55,214 nt of DNA, taken from NCBI GenBank assembly GCA_938075565.1, contig CALJGU010000069.1:1-55214 (forward strand), given 5' to 3'. This DNA comes from an uncultured Opitutales bacterium (GTDB taxonomy: Bacteria; Verrucomicrobiota; Verrucomicrobiia; Opitutales; UBA2995). Made by a program: the position numbers and the translations under genes. This document shows, one piece after another, positions 8,418 through 13,945 of the stretch. The notes below the pieces were generated by a model. The model saw only the letters and a program-made list of their open reading frames with translations, was not told where the DNA came from and ran no database searches. The stretch's first letter is position 1. Each line of letters starts with the position of its first letter.

Positions 8418-8585
8418 ATGCTTACCTGGGATGCCATAATAGTTAGCTTGTTAGTACTTGGCGCAGCCACGTACTTGGGAATGCACTATTTCAAGAAATG
8501 GAAGTCACCGAAAGCTTGCGGCTCCGGAAGCTGTGGCTGCAGCCAACCCAATTCCAAACTGTTTTCCAAAAAGAAATCGCTTTAA
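8418..8585 (+). CDS. FeoB-associated small Cys-rich membrane protein
   Basis: This 55-residue protein has one membrane segment (AIIVSLLVLGAATYLGMHYF) and a Cys-containing tail, ACGSGSCGCSQ, matching the family of small Cys-rich proteins encoded after feoB. The start ATG is 2 bases after the feoB stop. Its role is not established; the Cys cluster may handle Fe(II) or sense redox state. Its 3' half overlaps the convergent rhombosortase-like gene by 95 bases. Family membership rests on position and layout. Confidence 0.8.
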   Translation: MLTWDAIIVSLLVLGAATYLGMHYFKKWKSPKACGSGSCGCSQPNSKLFSKKKSL

Positions 8586-9162
8586 AGAGCGCCACCGCAA
8601 CAAGGACTCCCAAGAGGTGAGAAAGCGGACTGGCTTCGACCCCTTCTCCAAAGTGAGATACGAAAAAGGTACCTCCCAAAACAGTCTCCATCACCGGCTT
8701 TAGAACACTCGTGACGAAGGCGAATCCCCACATTAGCAACAACGCGCTTTTCTTTTTTAAACGGCAGAAGCTCATAGCTTGCAAACAGATCGCCGCAAAC
8801 AAACTCATATCCAGGGCACTTAGTCCTCGATAGTAGTTCATGTCCGGCTGCAGAACCAACAAGGCCAGTGATATGGTCACCGGAGCCAATATAAGAACGC
8901 TTACCCATAAGCTTCTGCGCACCCATTCAAGAAACAGACCGCAGGCGAAAAAAACAACCACGTCCCACAAAAGATGCGCGGAGTTCCAATGAACAAAGTG
9001 CCCAGTAAACAAGCGCCAGTACTCTCCCTCAAGAATTAGCTCCCGGTCATACTGGAGTGCTGATGCAAAGGTATCGGGAAACAAAGCCAAAAAGCAGGCA
9101 GCTACCCCGATAACTCCACTTATCCAGGGTAGCTGCTTTGATTTATCTGCGACCTTTGACAT
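8491..9162 (-). CDS. rrtA: Rhombosortase-like rhomboid-family intramembrane serine protease
   Basis: Rhombosortases are rhomboid-type intramembrane proteases thought to cleave GlyGly-CTERM tails of surface proteins. The 223-residue product has several membrane segments and the landmarks YDRELILEGEYWRLFTGH (38-55), HWNSAHLLWD (58-67), YRGLSALD with likely nucleophile Ser115, and SHLLG with likely catalytic His182. The start ATG lies 20 bases inside the preceding gene, which suggests translational coupling. It is the last gene of a minus-strand run whose first member ends in a GlyGly-CTERM-like tail, a probable substrate. The GLSA box differs from the GLSG usual in the family, so an ordinary rhomboid remains possible. 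The 3' end overlaps the feo operon. Confidence 0.75.
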   Translation of the reverse strand: MSKVADKSKQLPWISGVIGVAACFLALFPDTFASALQYDRELILEGEYWRLFTGHFVHWNSAHLLWDVVVFFACGLFLEWVRRSLWVSVLILAPVTISLALLVLQPDMNYYRGLSALDMSLFAAICLQAMSFCRLKKKSALLLMWGFAFVTSVLKPVMETVLGGTFFVSHFGEGVEASPLSHLLGVLVAVALFKAISFWKTVWNWVGCSHSFRSRKLSVTSIS

Positions 9163-9556
9163 TATCAGAGCTGTCAGTGGTCACACTGCCATGAACAAAA
9201 TCGATGATCGGAATCGCATTGAATAAGTTGATCCCAAAGTAGCCTCGACGTTCACGTGTATTGCGATCCTGCTTTACCTCCATCGAGTGACTGGAACGCG
9301 GAACGGAACAAGAAGGAGTCGAAACAGTTGCACGAGGCGCGAAGCTTCTCACCGGCTCGTCCGCGAGCTTAATATTCCAAAATTGCTCGATAGTATTATC
9401 CAGAGAAGACCTCTGTTGAGCCAGAGGTGGATTACTCAATCCACGATCTGTCCAACTGATACGGTCCATTCTATTAGTCGCATTGGCGACATTGATTAAG
9501 CCAATTAACGCGACAACGATACAGGCTTTCTTCATTAGATTATTATATTTTTTCAT
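9143..9556 (-). CDS. Small secreted protein of unknown function
   Basis: I do not recognise this 137-residue protein. It has an N-terminal signal peptide (KKACIVVALIGLINVANA, residues about 9-26). The mature part is polar, with two Cys-free thirds flanking a PSCSVP segment, and it ends in a basic DNVKGRR. A well-spaced AAGGA-type ribosome site precedes the ATG. It lies between the lipoprotein gene (15 bases upstream) and the rhombosortase-like gene (20-base overlap), so it is probably made with them. A role as partner or cargo of the surface system is only inference from position. Confidence 0.7.
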   Translation of the reverse strand: MKKYNNLMKKACIVVALIGLINVANATNRMDRISWTDRGLSNPPLAQQRSSLDNTIEQFWNIKLADEPVRSFAPRATVSTPSCSVPRSSHSMEVKQDRNTRERRGYFGINLFNAIPIIDFVHGSVTTDSSDNVKGRR

Positions 9557-9571
9557 GGTCCTTAATCCTTT

Positions 9572-10144
9572 TTATTTATTTGCATCCCGCTTTATCGTGA
9601 CGTCATCGACCCAGAAGCTCCCGGGTTTAAGAACGTTGAGCTCAAAACGGATTTGTTTAAACTTACTGGGCACCGTGTATTTATATGAATAACGTTTCCA
9701 ATTTGAGATCTGCTCATCGGAGCGAATGATTGTTTCCATCCGGCCATCAAATTCAGTCACAGCCCCAAAGTTCACAATAAACTCAGCCCCTTCATTCATA
9801 ACCCAAAATTCAATCGTATAGGTCTCACCAGGAATTGCATCCCACTGTTGACTTAATCCAGGGGAATGCCATCCACCGACCGAGGAGCATTCACGAACGA
9901 AAAACTTCAACGATTGTTTCCCCGATTTGAATTCGGACGTGTCGACGATCAAATCATAGTCTCCCTCAGGAATTGTTTTAGGAGAATAGATCAACCAATT
10001 CACAGGCAATCCAGATTCGGTGACTTCAAAGCTACCGTTTACGCCAACAGTGTCATCCTCGATGGTTTCGCTAAATTTACCACATGCAACTAGCGAGATG
10101 CCACAAAGCGCAATTGTGATCGTGCTACAGAACCTGGAAGTCAT
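9572..10144 (-). CDS. Lipoprotein with carbohydrate-binding-like jelly-roll domain
   Basis: The 190-residue product begins with a lipoprotein signal ending SLVACGK, so Cys would be lipidated. The remainder resembles the CBM4/9-type galactose-binding-like beta sandwich: an opening NGSFEVTESGLPVNW, a middle GETYTIEFWVMNEG, and an ending KQIRFELNVLKPGSFWVDD, the usual strand pattern. No catalytic domain is present, so it probably binds a ligand such as a polysaccharide. The ATG at 10144 is chosen because AGGAGG lies 9 bases upstream and the signal peptide begins there; the longer open frame reads into the previous gene. It is second in the operon behind the VIT/VWA gene. Confidence 0.75.
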   Translation of the reverse strand: MTSRFCSTITIALCGISLVACGKFSETIEDDTVGVNGSFEVTESGLPVNWLIYSPKTIPEGDYDLIVDTSEFKSGKQSLKFFVRECSSVGGWHSPGLSQQWDAIPGETYTIEFWVMNEGAEFIVNFGAVTEFDGRMETIIRSDEQISNWKRYSYKYTVPSKFKQIRFELNVLKPGSFWVDDVTIKRDANK

Positions 10145-10218
10145 CCTATTGCCCCTCCTAGAACAGCGACTGTTTTTTCGATGATCATAATCATGTCTTC
10201 TATTGATTGAATTAAAAC

Positions 10219-12273
10219 TTAAGCAGCGAATGTTCGACGAGCAACCAGCGCTAGCAGTGCGACTATAAATACAGCCACCCATTCTGAGATGGAACCTGCG
10301 CCTCCTCCTACACCTCCATTGTAAGTGGGCGCAGGCGCATTCTCACTAAAAGCAGGCTTATTATTATCCACCCGGTAGTTGATTGTCGGTTGCTGAGCCC
10401 GCTGCATTTGCGCAATTTGTTCGATGTCAGTTCGAGCGAGGTTTCGTCGATCGATTCCATACTGCTCAAACTGCTCATCTGACAGCACCAACATAGAGGT
10501 GTAATCCGTTACCAGCTGATACTGTAGAGATAGATCCGAAATCGCGGACTCCGATTCAGAGGCATCGGTCAGTCCCAACCTCTTCTGCTGCTCAAGGAAC
10601 TGAATTCGATTAAGCGCCCACAATCTCTCCAGCTCGGGATTATCGGTATCCAATTCGGGGAACTGAAAACGAGTCGTATAAAGTTTATCCTGCCCTGAGA
10701 TTCGAGCAGAGATCTCCAAATCCGCTTCACCTCCGTCAGCATAGCGGCCAAAGAAAACCAACTGCTGACCACGGAATACTTTCTTTATCTGAGTCGGTGA
10801 AACATCGAAGGCATCAACACCACGGATCTTAAGGTCAAAATCATGAATGCTTTCGTGAAGCACTTTGCTTTTCGCCAACAAGATTTGCCCGATGATATCG
10901 TCACTATTTGAAACAGCCTTATAGTGACCACCTGTCGCATTGCAGACAGTCTCCATCAACGGCCAGTTACTTTGATTCCCTATAAGAAACCCGAAGAACC
11001 GTATATCCGATTGACTCATCAAGGCATCAAAATCTTTTGCATCAACAATCCCTTTATTGGTTACTCCATCCGTCACCAGGATCATACTGGTCACACGATC
11101 GCTATCCAAGGAATCCAAACCGCGCTTCAATCCGGAATAGAGATTGGTACCTCCTCCGGATTGAGCACGGTCAAGCAACTCGACTGCATGGTCTACTTGC
11201 TCAGGGGTGGCGGGCAACCAGGTCTTTGTCAGTTCGCGACTTTCATCATTAAACACTACGATCCGGAACCTGTCTTGAGGCCTAAAGGTTTTGATAGTCT
11301 GCTTCACTCCAGCAACCAAAGTCCCCAGCTTTCCACTCATGCTACCGGAGACATCGAGCACAAATATGTAGTCACTTCCCTGATCCAGCGGTTTCAGATC
11401 AACTCCGGGAGTTACCACCATCATAAACGTACCCGGTAATTCGGTACTAGCCTTAAAGAGGACAACTTCAATTCGTCCAGGCAGGTTATCCTGGAGGCGA
11501 TAATACAAAACAAAGTCTTTATTCAAATCCCCACCCGCAGATTCAAACCGAGTGAATCGGCTTTGCTCCGATTCCCACTGAGTGGTATTAAACCCGGGAG
11601 TTCGAATGTCAGCGACTGGCCAAGCTGACTTAAATTCGACTTCGATACTTAAGCTATTTTGCACAGAACTGTTTCTCGACCAGAACTGAGGAATCACTTC
11701 TTCAGTTCCTCCTTCTTCCAAGGTGTACAAATAGCGACCGATACCATGGTCCAATTCCAGCGGCTCGTAGTAAGTGAATTGCAGTTTCACTTCACTGTTC
11801 GCAGGGATTGGGGCTACCCAAAATTCGAAATCACGGTATCCATCCTTCTGGGTCAAGCCAGCTTGGTTGCCCCTGGAGGTTTCCGCTTCGTAAATCTGCT
11901 CAGCCCTATCCTTCTCAACGACCTCCCCTTTCATCTCGTTGTCTCCAGCAAGAATAGTTACCTCAGAAAGGCTTCCCTGCTTCGGAACCGGAAAGGTATA
12001 AAGACCCTCAACGGAACGAGGATTACTATTGTAGAAGACCTGACTAACTGACGTTCGAGCAAAGCCATTCTGGATGGTCACGGATACCTGATGGTCGCGT
12101 ATCTCCAAAGGAAGATCACCCGCTGCATTCAGGCTCAATGTGCCGGCAGCCCGGCTCTCATTTACGAATACGACCCCAATGACCAATAAGGCCAAAAGAG
12201 AGATTATCCGGGGAATGTTTGAAGTAAAAGTAGAGCTCTCTGGAGCCCCATTAGTGTTACTTTGATTTTTCAT
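10219..12273 (-). CDS. VIT and VWA domain surface protein with GlyGly-CTERM-like tail
   Basis: The 684-residue protein has, in order, a signal peptide or anchor (about 21-43), a VIT domain (about 50-170), and a VWA domain (about 300-470) with an intact metal site: DVSGSMS (307-313), Thr in GGGTN (376) and Asp in VTDG (402). The tail is NGGVGGGAGS, then a hydrophobic segment (EWVAVFIVALLALVA) and ARR. That tail fits GlyGly-CTERM sorting signals, which rhombosortases are believed to process; a rhombosortase-like gene is three genes downstream. The domain layout recalls the VIT/VWA sortase targets of marine proteobacteria, with a different anchor. The ATG at 12273 is preferred to the GTG at 12294 because a sigma-54 promoter at 12301-12316 places the transcription start near 12290. 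Confidence 0.88.
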   Translation of the reverse strand: MKNQSNTNGAPESSTFTSNIPRIISLLALLVIGVVFVNESRAAGTLSLNAAGDLPLEIRDHQVSVTIQNGFARTSVSQVFYNSNPRSVEGLYTFPVPKQGSLSEVTILAGDNEMKGEVVEKDRAEQIYEAETSRGNQAGLTQKDGYRDFEFWVAPIPANSEVKLQFTYYEPLELDHGIGRYLYTLEEGGTEEVIPQFWSRNSSVQNSLSIEVEFKSAWPVADIRTPGFNTTQWESEQSRFTRFESAGGDLNKDFVLYYRLQDNLPGRIEVVLFKASTELPGTFMMVVTPGVDLKPLDQGSDYIFVLDVSGSMSGKLGTLVAGVKQTIKTFRPQDRFRIVVFNDESRELTKTWLPATPEQVDHAVELLDRAQSGGGTNLYSGLKRGLDSLDSDRVTSMILVTDGVTNKGIVDAKDFDALMSQSDIRFFGFLIGNQSNWPLMETVCNATGGHYKAVSNSDDIIGQILLAKSKVLHESIHDFDLKIRGVDAFDVSPTQIKKVFRGQQLVFFGRYADGGEADLEISARISGQDKLYTTRFQFPELDTDNPELERLWALNRIQFLEQQKRLGLTDASESESAISDLSLQYQLVTDYTSMLVLSDEQFEQYGIDRRNLARTDIEQIAQMQRAQQPTINYRVDNNKPAFSENAPAPTYNGGVGGGAGSISEWVAVFIVALLALVARRTFAA

Positions 12274-12300
12274 GGTGTGTTTTGATTCGAACACACCTAT

Positions 12301-12316
12301 TGCACAAGCGATGCCA
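12301..12316 (-). promoter_or_regulatory. Sigma-54 (-24/-12) promoter of the VIT/VWA operon
   Basis: Read on the minus strand, the site is TGGCATCGCTTGTGCA: GG and GC separated by exactly 10 bases, with TGGCA and TGCA matching the consensus TGGCACG-N4-TTGCA. It ends 28 bases before the VIT/VWA ATG. The divergent neighbour encodes a sigma-54 activator with an intact GAFTGA motif, which strongly supports function. Confidence 0.75.
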
Positions 12317-12424
12317 GTCTTAATTATTCATCCCTAAACCATTGTCCTATAACAATATAAAATATTGCCCTTTAAATATGATGCTTTCTAAGGCTATATT
12401 TAATAGACATATAATGATCTTCGC

Positions 12425-13945
12425 ATGACATTTTATGTAATCCAAGAGTCTATGTATACTCAATCCCAATCCAAACTTGCTGAAAAATTAGTCCACATTA
12501 TCTACTGCAATCCCTTCGGACCCGAGCGACAGGAACTAACGAAGGAGATTCTGGGCGACGATGCTCTCAATCGGAAACAGCAAGGAGCTGCCGCCTTTGA
12601 GCACCCGTCAATCATTGAGCAACTCCTCAATCTTAGCGACGGCCTCTTGAAATTGGGTCGAGAATCCATTGGCAAGGTAGTCAATCCATCGACTGACCCC
12701 AGCTGCAAGCTCTACGAACACCTCCTCTACTTCGATCTGTATCATCGCCTGGGCCCTTCCATGGATCTGTTCATCGCCAACTGCATCGACCAACCCGACA
12801 AGAACCTTGCATGGAATGATTATCGGATACTTGAAGATACCTATGATCACTTTCTTTCGGCACCAAATAGAAAACTAAAGCCGGATTACTCAAAAGAAGA
12901 GTTCGCTAGCTTCGTTTACCAAATTCGCAGGGCGTTTTATCATACTCAAAATTCTTTGGTCGGACGCTCGGAAGCCATGACCCAACTTCGCATTCGAGTT
13001 TGGAATTCGGTCTTCACTCATAACATGAAGCGCTACTTGCGTTCTCTATACCATCGTATGGAAAATGTGGTTACCCTCATAGAAGGACCATCCGGTTCAG
13101 GAAAAGAACTGGTAGCTCGAGCGATCGGTTTCTCACGCTTTATTCCATTCGATGCCACAACCAAGAAGTTCAGCGCAAACTATCGTCAGGTATTTTTTCC
13201 GATCAATTTGTCGGCTCTTTCAGAAACGCTGATCGAGTCAGAATTGTTTGGTCATCAAAAAGGGGCCTTTACCGGTGCACTTCAAAACCGTGCTGGTTAC
13301 TTCGAGAGTTGCGGTCCTTATGGAACTGTTTTTCTTGATGAGATTGGTGAAACCGATGAGTCCATCCAGGTGAAGCTACTTCGTGTGCTTCAGACCCGGC
13401 AATTCCAGCGACTGGGCGATACAACCCCTTTGCGTTTTCAGGGCAAAGCGATGGCAGCAACTAATCGCAATCTGGAAGAGGAAATGCAAAAAGGACATTT
13501 CCGAACCGACTTCTATTATCGGCTCTGTGCAGACCGGATCGAAACACCGGCACTAATCTCCATGCTCGGCAACAAAAAGGAATTAGAGCTTCTTGTCTCG
13601 TTCGTTGCTGAACGAATAGCAGGCCCTCAGGAAAAGAAAACGCTGACCGAAGAAGTCACGACCTGGATAAACAAATCCATGCCATCCGATTACTCATGGC
13701 CCGGAAACTTTCGCGAGCTGGAGCAATGCGTGAGGAATGTGATGGTCAATGGAGAATACCGTGGACAACAAGGACACACGACCTCGAGTGCGGAAACAAG
13801 CTACACCCGAACCCCCACCTTAAACCAATGGATCCAGACACTCGTTAATCGCGAGTACACTAAAACAGCAAATCTAGCTCAAGTAGCCGAACGCCTACAA
13901 GTAGACCGACGTACGGTGAAGAAGTATCTGGATCTTAAAACCTAA
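12425..13945 (+). CDS. Sigma-54-dependent transcriptional activator (AAA+), divergent from the VIT/VWA operon
   Basis: The 506-residue protein has an N-terminal region of about 175 residues that I do not recognise. It shows no obvious receiver, GAF or PAS signature. The AAA+ domain (about 178-440) has Walker A GPSGSGKE (221-228), the sigma-54-contacting GAFTGA (280-285), Walker B TVFLDEIGE (301-309) and arginine-finger region FRTDFYYRL. A helix-turn-helix (NLAQVAERLQVDRRTVKKYL, 483-502) ends the protein. It probably switches on the divergent surface-protein operon, which has a -24/-12 promoter. Two starts are possible. The ATG at 12425 gives the longest frame. The ATG at 12452 has an AAGAG just upstream and fits better with a TATAAT at 12410-12415, whose start point would be near 12422. 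Confidence 0.9.
   Translation: MTFYVIQESMYTQSQSKLAEKLVHIIYCNPFGPERQELTKEILGDDALNRKQQGAAAFEHPSIIEQLLNLSDGLLKLGRESIGKVVNPSTDPSCKLYEHLLYFDLYHRLGPSMDLFIANCIDQPDKNLAWNDYRILEDTYDHFLSAPNRKLKPDYSKEEFASFVYQIRRAFYHTQNSLVGRSEAMTQLRIRVWNSVFTHNMKRYLRSLYHRMENVVTLIEGPSGSGKELVARAIGFSRFIPFDATTKKFSANYRQVFFPINLSALSETLIESELFGHQKGAFTGALQNRAGYFESCGPYGTVFLDEIGETDESIQVKLLRVLQTRQFQRLGDTTPLRFQGKAMAATNRNLEEEMQKGHFRTDFYYRLCADRIETPALISMLGNKKELELLVSFVAERIAGPQEKKTLTEEVTTWINKSMPSDYSWPGNFRELEQCVRNVMVNGEYRGQQGHTTSSAETSYTRTPTLNQWIQTLVNREYTKTANLAQVAERLQVDRRTVKKYLDLKT

What the first reader, a model, noticed from the sequence alone, without database searches (positions are those of the whole stretch)
8491..13945. Sigma-54-controlled surface island: VIT/VWA protein with GlyGly tail, two secreted partners and a rhombosortase-like protease
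Seen in the sequence: a divergent activator with an intact GAFTGA motif, a minus-strand operon starting with a VIT/VWA protein whose tail is Gly-rich, hydrophobic and Arg-ended, then a lipoprotein, a small secreted protein and a rhombosortase-like protease. Known: rhombosortases are paired with GlyGly-CTERM tails; VIT/VWA proteins paired with a sortase exist in marine proteobacteria; PEP-CTERM systems often use sigma-54 regulators. Inference: this is a dedicated surface-display unit in which the protease processes the VIT/VWA adhesin-like protein, switched on by its own activator. The combination of these four parts is new to me.
Basis: partly seen in the sequence, partly recalled or inferred. 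Interest (0 to 1): 0.78.

Follow-up and report, generated by a model that had tools for sequence, protein, structure and literature searches.

The report
Dedicated rhombosortase unit for VIT/VWA protein
A bacterial cell-surface protein resembling a human blood-matrix protein is encoded beside what looks like its own private membrane protease and its own genetic switch, and the protein-protease pair recurs side by side in bacteria of about ten phyla, which points to a widespread and experimentally untested surface-display system.

Summary
The window carries a divergent sigma-54 activator with an intact GAFTGA motif, then VIT/VWA protein, lipoprotein, small secreted protein and rhombosortase on the minus strand. 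The rhombosortase passes TIGR03902 (105.9 bits, cut-off 84). In an evenly drawn sample of 241 genomes of the phylum, all 24 with the VIT/VWA orthologue have a rhombosortase, 23 directly downstream (P = 5e-22). Of the 80 best relatives in a genome collection, 71 have a rhombosortase downstream; 42 have the divergent activator. In the quick tree these rhombosortases separate from gammaproteobacterial and rhombotarget-lipoprotein ones; none of the 71 has the diagnostic His at Ser+4, most having YRGLSG[IL]D. The promoter region carries a conserved -24/-12 site and paired palindromes (RCATNNNATGY, 21-22 bp apart). The lipoprotein and small protein are accessories. VIT/VWA proteins with GlyGly tails, and single-target rhombosortases beside their target, were described in 2011; the subfamily, tail form and sigma-54 circuit were not found described. 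Processing, lipid attachment, surface localisation and signal are inferred.

The parts
8491..9162 (-). Rhombosortase (223 aa); Ser115 in YRGLSALDM (codon starts at 8820), His182 (codon starts at 8619); Met at Ser+4, Asp at Ser+3
   Evidence: TIGR03902 105.9 bits, cut-off 84; Ser and His invariant in 18 aligned rhombosortases; coordinates
9143..9556 (-). Small secreted protein with signal peptide (137 aa), overlaps the protease start; accessory
   Evidence: No family; homologues between VIT/VWA and protease in other genomes of the genus and in family f4; fused behind the VIT/VWA tail in a Pelagicoccus MAG, L096
9572..10144 (-). Lipoprotein with lipobox LVAC and CBM_4_9-like domain; accessory
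   Evidence: CBM_4_9 29.6 bits against 25.9; elsewhere only a fragment in G004
10219..12273 (-). VIT/VWA surface protein; MIDAS residues present (A1 positions D302, S304, S306, T371, D397)
   Evidence: VIT 95.7 bits, VWA; the five MIDAS positions invariant in 12 orthologues; PDB profile relatives ITIH4, ITIH1, PARP4
10222..10317 (-). C-terminal tripartite tail GGVGGGAGSISEW-TM-RRTFAA, predicted rhombosortase signal
   Evidence: Conserved in 74 aligned tails; single match of the tail profile in this genome; no NCBIfam GlyGly model matched
12301..12316 (-). Sigma-54 -24/-12 promoter TGGCATCGCTTGTGCA, 27 nt before the VIT/VWA start
   Evidence: Score 19.5 of 22.7, 0.6% of mononucleotide shuffles as good; pattern in 35 of 42 loci with the divergent activator against 5% of shuffles
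12407..12417 (-). Activator-site palindrome 2, TCATTATATGT
   Evidence: Paired palindromes 21-22 bp apart conserved across loci
12428..12438 (-). Activator-site palindrome 1, ACATAAAATGT, 21 bp from palindrome 2
   Evidence: Pair score 15 of 16, 0 of 100 shuffles as good
12452..13945 (+). Sigma-54 activator: all-helical N-terminal domain with NPF motif, AAA+ domain with GAFTGA (13262-13279), C-terminal HTH; ORF as called starts at 12425
   Evidence: Sigma54_activat 157 bits; model pLDDT 90.6; N-terminal domain has no PDB match at E<=0.001

Best explanation
This is a dedicated rhombosortase unit. The VIT/VWA protein is exported through its signal peptide and held in the inner membrane by its C-terminal helix. 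The neighbouring rhombosortase cuts in or just behind the glycine run and, by analogy with VesB of Vibrio cholerae, probably moves the protein onto a phosphoethanolamine-type lipid, after which it goes to the outer surface, perhaps by a type II-like system. There the VWA metal site and VIT domain bind an unknown partner. The divergent activator binds two palindromes and drives the operon from a sigma-54 promoter in response to a signal read by its N-terminal domain. Shown by sequence: the genes, the conserved pairing, the tail, the promoter and site motifs, the separate protease branch in the quick tree. Inferred: cleavage, lipid attachment, surface location, activator binding to the palindromes, ligand, signal.
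For: Phylum sample of 241 genomes: 24 of 24 VIT/VWA genomes have a rhombosortase, 23 directly downstream, the 24th at a contig end. Order sample: 11 of 11 adjacent, most with the divergent activator. Genome collection: 71 of the 80 best relatives have the protease downstream, usually within 100 bp or overlapping, and 42 the divergent activator; 7 of 9 exceptions hold a rhombosortase over cut-off elsewhere. Tail motif in 71 of 78 relatives by pattern, one place in this genome. In the quick tree VIT-linked proteases separate from gammaproteobacterial and rhombotarget-lipoprotein ones. Promoter and paired sites with a sharp 21-22 bp peak. Catalytic Ser and His invariant. Biochemistry by analogy: PMC6219818, PMC13393428.
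Against: No experiment. The tail matches no curated GlyGly-CTERM model. The protease lacks the His at Ser+4 described as nearly universal in rhombosortases (PMC3237569), so the chemistry could differ. A type II secretin at the curated level was not found in this genome (best 320 bits against 351). One sister species (G004) has lost the VIT/VWA gene and keeps the protease. The -12 element is weak in several loci of the order: 4 of 10 match the strict pattern. The 80 relatives were chosen by similarity, and most are MAGs whose organism names are the depositors'. The tree is the quick search; the careful one did not finish.
Confidence: 0.8

Rival explanations
1. The protease only cuts the VIT/VWA protein off the membrane (sheddase); the product is released or becomes periplasmic, with no lipid attached.
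For: Rhomboids are hydrolases; the residue at Ser+4 differs from classical rhombosortases; no type II secretin at the curated level in this genome.
Against: Passes the rhombosortase model; the tripartite tail has the form whose Vibrio counterpart is cut and then modified (PMC6219818, PMC13393428).
Confidence: 0.2
2. The tail is an ordinary C-terminal membrane anchor and the rhomboid is a general quality-control protease that sits nearby by operon habit.
For: Tail matches no GlyGly-CTERM model; G004 keeps the protease without its target.
Against: Pairing 23 of 24 across the phylum, P = 5e-22 for co-occurrence; separate protease branch; shared tail motif in distant phyla.
Confidence: 0.05
3. The activator does not control this operon; the sites belong to autoregulation or to a wider envelope regulon.
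For: The activator family occurs in 27 of 87 genomes of the order, many of them without this VIT/VWA gene, and outward sigma-54-like sites lie next to it there too.
Against: The -24/-12 site points at the VIT/VWA gene and is present in 35 of 42 loci with the activator against 13 of 33 without. In G027 the activator lies next to a rhombotarget lipoprotein-rhombosortase pair.
Confidence: 0.12

Closest known systems
Rhombosortase/GlyGly-CTERM (RssP-VesB of Vibrio cholerae; TIGR03902/TIGR03501)
   Same: Protease passes TIGR03902; Gly-rich motif, hydrophobic helix, basic end; single-target systems are often adjacent (PMC3237569: 16 of 21).
   Different: Tail outside TIGR03501; consensus GGGGA[ILF]DP; protease YRGLSG[IL]D with Asp at Ser+3 and no His at Ser+4, where 21 of 29 gammaproteobacterial ones have it; separate branch in the quick tree; sigma-54 circuit.
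VIT/VWA proteins with GlyGly-CTERM, LPXTG or PEP-CTERM tails (PMC3237569, Fig. 3C)
   Same: Same protein kind; the 2011 paper shows members with GlyGly-CTERM tails.
   Different: That paper shows a few examples; it does not describe the protease branch, the multi-phylum spread or the regulator.
Proteobacterial dedicated sortase system (TIGR03788 target with sortase TIGR03784)
   Same: One VIT/VWA target beside its own sorting enzyme and, from memory, its own regulator.
   Different: Sortase and LPXTG instead of rhombosortase and Gly tail; TIGR03788 score 217.9 against a cut-off of 551.65; regulator here is a sigma-54 activator.
Rhombotarget lipoprotein units (TIGR04179)
   Same: Target plus adjacent rhombosortase in the same order; in G027 beside the same activator family.
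   Different: Lipoprotein target with a GYTGSG-type tail; protease on another branch.
Inter-alpha-trypsin inhibitor heavy chains (ITIH1, ITIH4)
   Same: VIT-VWA architecture; ITIH chains are the best PDB profile matches.
   Different: Bacterial protein ends in a sorting tail.

Membership tests
Rhombosortase (TIGR03902) | Score over the curated cut-off of 84 bits | tested here: met
   105.9 bits. Of the 24 VIT/VWA genomes in the phylum sample, 13 have a paired protease under the cut-off
Rhombosortase (TIGR03902) | Catalytic Ser in TM4 and His in TM6 | tested here: met
   Ser115 and His182 invariant in 18 aligned sequences
Rhombosortase (TIGR03902) | His at Ser+4, described as present in virtually all rhombosortases (PMC3237569) | tested here: not met
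   Met in the window; no His among 69 VIT-linked proteases read by pattern, and the two not read by it have A and T; 21 of 29 gammaproteobacterial ones have His
Rhombosortase (TIGR03902) | Cleaves a GlyGly tail | not testable with these tools
   Needs a mutant and mass spectrometry
GlyGly-CTERM (TIGR03501) | Score over 15.5 bits | tested here: not met
   No hit for the window tail; 4 of 74 related tails match at E<=1, 22 match the GlyGly-form MprA_tail model
GlyGly-CTERM (TIGR03501) | Tripartite form: Gly motif, hydrophobic helix, basic end, at the C-terminus of a protein with a signal peptide | tested here: met
   Read directly; conserved in 74 tails
GlyGly-CTERM (TIGR03501) | No Cys in the motif (separates it from MYXO-CTERM) | tested here: met
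   No Cys in the window tail; MYXO-CTERM 14.9 bits against 20
Type II secretion dependence | GspD at the curated level | tested here: inconclusive
   Secretin at 320 bits against 351.35
Sigma-54 activator | AAA+ domain with GAFTGA and a C-terminal HTH | tested here: met
Sigma-54-dependent promoter | TGGC[AC]-N8-GC before the target gene | tested here: met
   12316-12301; use by RpoN not testable, and rpoN was not searched
Proteobacterial dedicated sortase target (TIGR03788) | Score over 551.65 bits | tested here: not met
   217.9 bits

The most novel reading that the evidence does not exclude
A second, separate class of rhombosortase, devoted to one VIT/VWA protein, with its own active-site signature (Arg before GLS, Asp at Ser+3, no His at Ser+4) and tail code (GGGGA[ILF]DP), inducible through sigma-54 and an unknown helical sensor domain, and spread over about ten phyla.
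Probability: 0.5. Interest if true: 0.72.

Novelty: new variant of a known kind. Interest (0 to 1): 0.6.

Why it matters
Rhombosortase biochemistry is known mainly from Vibrio, where one enzyme serves six substrates. A one-enzyme, one-substrate unit with its own regulator, found as a block in many phyla, gives a clean test of substrate recognition and of what the modification is for. About half of the paired proteases in the phylum sample fall under the curated rhombosortase cut-off, so part of the system is invisible to standard annotation. The regulatory motif gives a way to find what signal calls for this surface protein.

Tried and rejected
Curated CTERM models on the window tail: only a sub-threshold MYXO-CTERM match. 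My first sigma-54 pattern had the wrong spacing and found nothing (1 of 42); corrected. Fold search of the activator's N-terminal domain: no PDB match at E<=0.001, best 0.68. The full-length model's best matches are other sigma-54 activators. Relaxed selection in G004: the protease has dN/dS 0.30 against 0.01-0.04 in flanking genes, but dS in the island (0.19-0.23) is well under that of the flanks (0.49-0.63), so recombination confounds it. The idea that the activator belongs only to this unit was rejected. The careful tree search did not finish in the 300 s call and was not continued. Papers naming rhombosortase with VIT domain, sigma-54 or inter-alpha-trypsin: none in the open library; subscription papers are not held.
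Full report
Observation. The protease 8491-9162(-) passes the curated rhombosortase model TIGR03902 with 105.9 bits against 84. The VIT/VWA protein has VIT at 95.7 bits and a VWA domain; the five MIDAS positions are invariant in 12 orthologues; its profile finds ITIH4, ITIH1 and PARP4 in the PDB. The activator has an intact GAFTGA at 13262-13279. The lipoprotein carries a weak CBM_4_9 match and the small protein has no family. The tail matches no GlyGly-CTERM model; its only NCBIfam hit is MYXO-CTERM at 14.9 bits against 20.

Conservation in the order. Eighty-seven genomes of the order were searched with the VIT/VWA protein and with TIGR03902. Eleven have a VIT/VWA orthologue above 600 bits; all eleven have a rhombosortase beside it, against 17 of 87 overall. 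In the fetched stretches, which include one further genome of the genus (G005), the divergent activator stands upstream in most; it is missing in G085, whose activator lies elsewhere, and in G079, whose contig starts inside the VIT/VWA gene. The small protein sits between target and protease in G005, G006, G051 and G079. The lipoprotein is otherwise only a fragment in G004. So the conserved core is activator, VIT/VWA protein and rhombosortase.

Conservation in the phylum. In an evenly drawn sample of 241 genomes, 24 have a VIT/VWA match at E<=1e-150 and 42 a rhombosortase match at E<=1e-15. All 24 are among the 42 (hypergeometric P = 5e-22), and in 23 the protease lies on the same strand within 1.2 kb; in the last the VIT/VWA gene is at a contig end. 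Thirteen of these 24 genomes have their paired protease under the curated cut-off, so annotation by that model misses about half. The hypergeometric P treats genomes as independent, which related genomes are not.

Conservation beyond. The one scan of genome contigs returned the 80 best of 379 relatives. Seventy-one have a rhombosortase downstream. By record titles they come from Verrucomicrobiota, Lentisphaerota, Kiritimatiellota, Planctomycetota, Acidobacteriota, Thermodesulfobacteriota, Pseudomonadota, Spirochaetota, Elusimicrobiota and a few candidate phyla; these names are the depositors' and most records are MAGs. Of nine loci without a protease beside the gene, seven genomes hold one over cut-off elsewhere, and an eighth a weak match.

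Tail. Of 78 relatives, 71 fit the pattern G[GS]G-[AVF]-[ILFVM], usually GGGGA[IL]DP. A profile of 74 tails finds one place in this genome, the VIT/VWA protein itself, and a single strong match in each of the other VIT/VWA genomes searched. This supports one enzyme, one target. Its limit is that a profile made from VIT/VWA tails favours such tails.

Protease branch. Among 69 VIT-linked proteases read by pattern, 58 have Arg before GLS and 58 have Asp at Ser+3; none has His at Ser+4. In the gammaproteobacterial set 21 of 29 have that His, as the 2011 paper says of virtually all rhombosortases (PMC3237569). In a quick tree all VIT-linked proteases fall on one side of the midpoint root, together with five from VIT/VWA genomes whose protease was found away from the gene; gammaproteobacterial and rhombotarget-lipoprotein-linked ones fall on the other (support 93, below the tool's starred level). 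The careful tree search did not finish in that call, so the tree result is provisional.

Regulation. A -24/-12 site TGGCATCGCTTGTGCA lies at 12316-12301, 27 nt before the VIT/VWA start. The pattern TGGC[AC]-N8-GC is present in 35 of 42 loci with the divergent activator, against 5% of shuffles, and in 13 of 33 without it; in this order only 4 of 10 meet the strict pattern. Two palindromes RCATNNNATGY lie upstream, with a sharp excess of good pairs at 21 and 22 bp (16 and 11 loci, against 0 to 4 at other spacings); in the window they are 12438-12428 and 12417-12407. The consensus was drawn from the loci of the order before it was scored, so the within-order scores are partly circular; the loci of other phyla are the fairer test. 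The same kind of activator occurs in 27 of 87 genomes of the order and has other neighbours in many; in G027 it stands beside a rhombotarget lipoprotein and its rhombosortase. Its N-terminal domain is all-helical and confidently modelled and has no PDB match at E<=0.001. Whether this genome has rpoN was not searched.

Mechanism. In V. [quoted passage not shown] the GlyGly tail and processing suffice for membrane association, but a second signal is needed for outer-membrane passage (PMC13393428). By analogy the VIT/VWA protein is processed here. The analogy is limited: the tail is not a curated GlyGly-CTERM, the protease lacks the His at Ser+4, and the secretins found in this genome are under the GspD cut-off.

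Known and new. The 2011 paper already shows VIT/VWA proteins with GlyGly-CTERM, LPXTG and PEP-CTERM tails, and reports that 16 of 21 single-target rhombosortases lie no more than one gene from their target. I found no paper in the open library that describes the VIT-linked protease branch or the sigma-54 circuit. The finding is therefore a new variant of a known kind. VIT/VWA paralogues with PEP-CTERM-like tails occur in the same order.

Noticed in passing
L096:5995-8376: In a Pelagicoccus MAG the VIT/VWA protein, with its Gly tail, runs on in one open frame into the small secreted protein, so the tail is internal; the rhombosortase lies elsewhere in that genome. A like arrangement might explain Verrucomicrobiae bacterium DG1235, reported in 2011 with a rhombosortase but no recognised target; not tested.
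   Followed up: partly
L032:6686-8336: In sister species G004 a deletion joins the C-terminal parts of the activator and lipoprotein genes and removes the VIT/VWA gene; small protein and protease remain.
   Followed up: partly
window:8491-9556 against L032: dS of the small protein and protease genes (0.19, 0.23) is far under that of the flanking genes (0.49-0.63), which suggests the island has recombined between the two species.
   Followed up: no
L081:4960-9030: The same activator family stands near a rhombotarget lipoprotein (TIGR04179) and its rhombosortase, so the regulator goes with more than one rhombosortase target.
   Followed up: partly
L047, L048, L049, L050: VIT/VWA paralogues of the same order (about 25-28% identity) end in PEP-CTERM-like tails; G054 and G046 hold both kinds.
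   Followed up: no
L215:3158-3949, L216:3148-3924: The activator family stands beside an unnamed lipoprotein without a sorting tail (no NCBIfam match).
   Followed up: no
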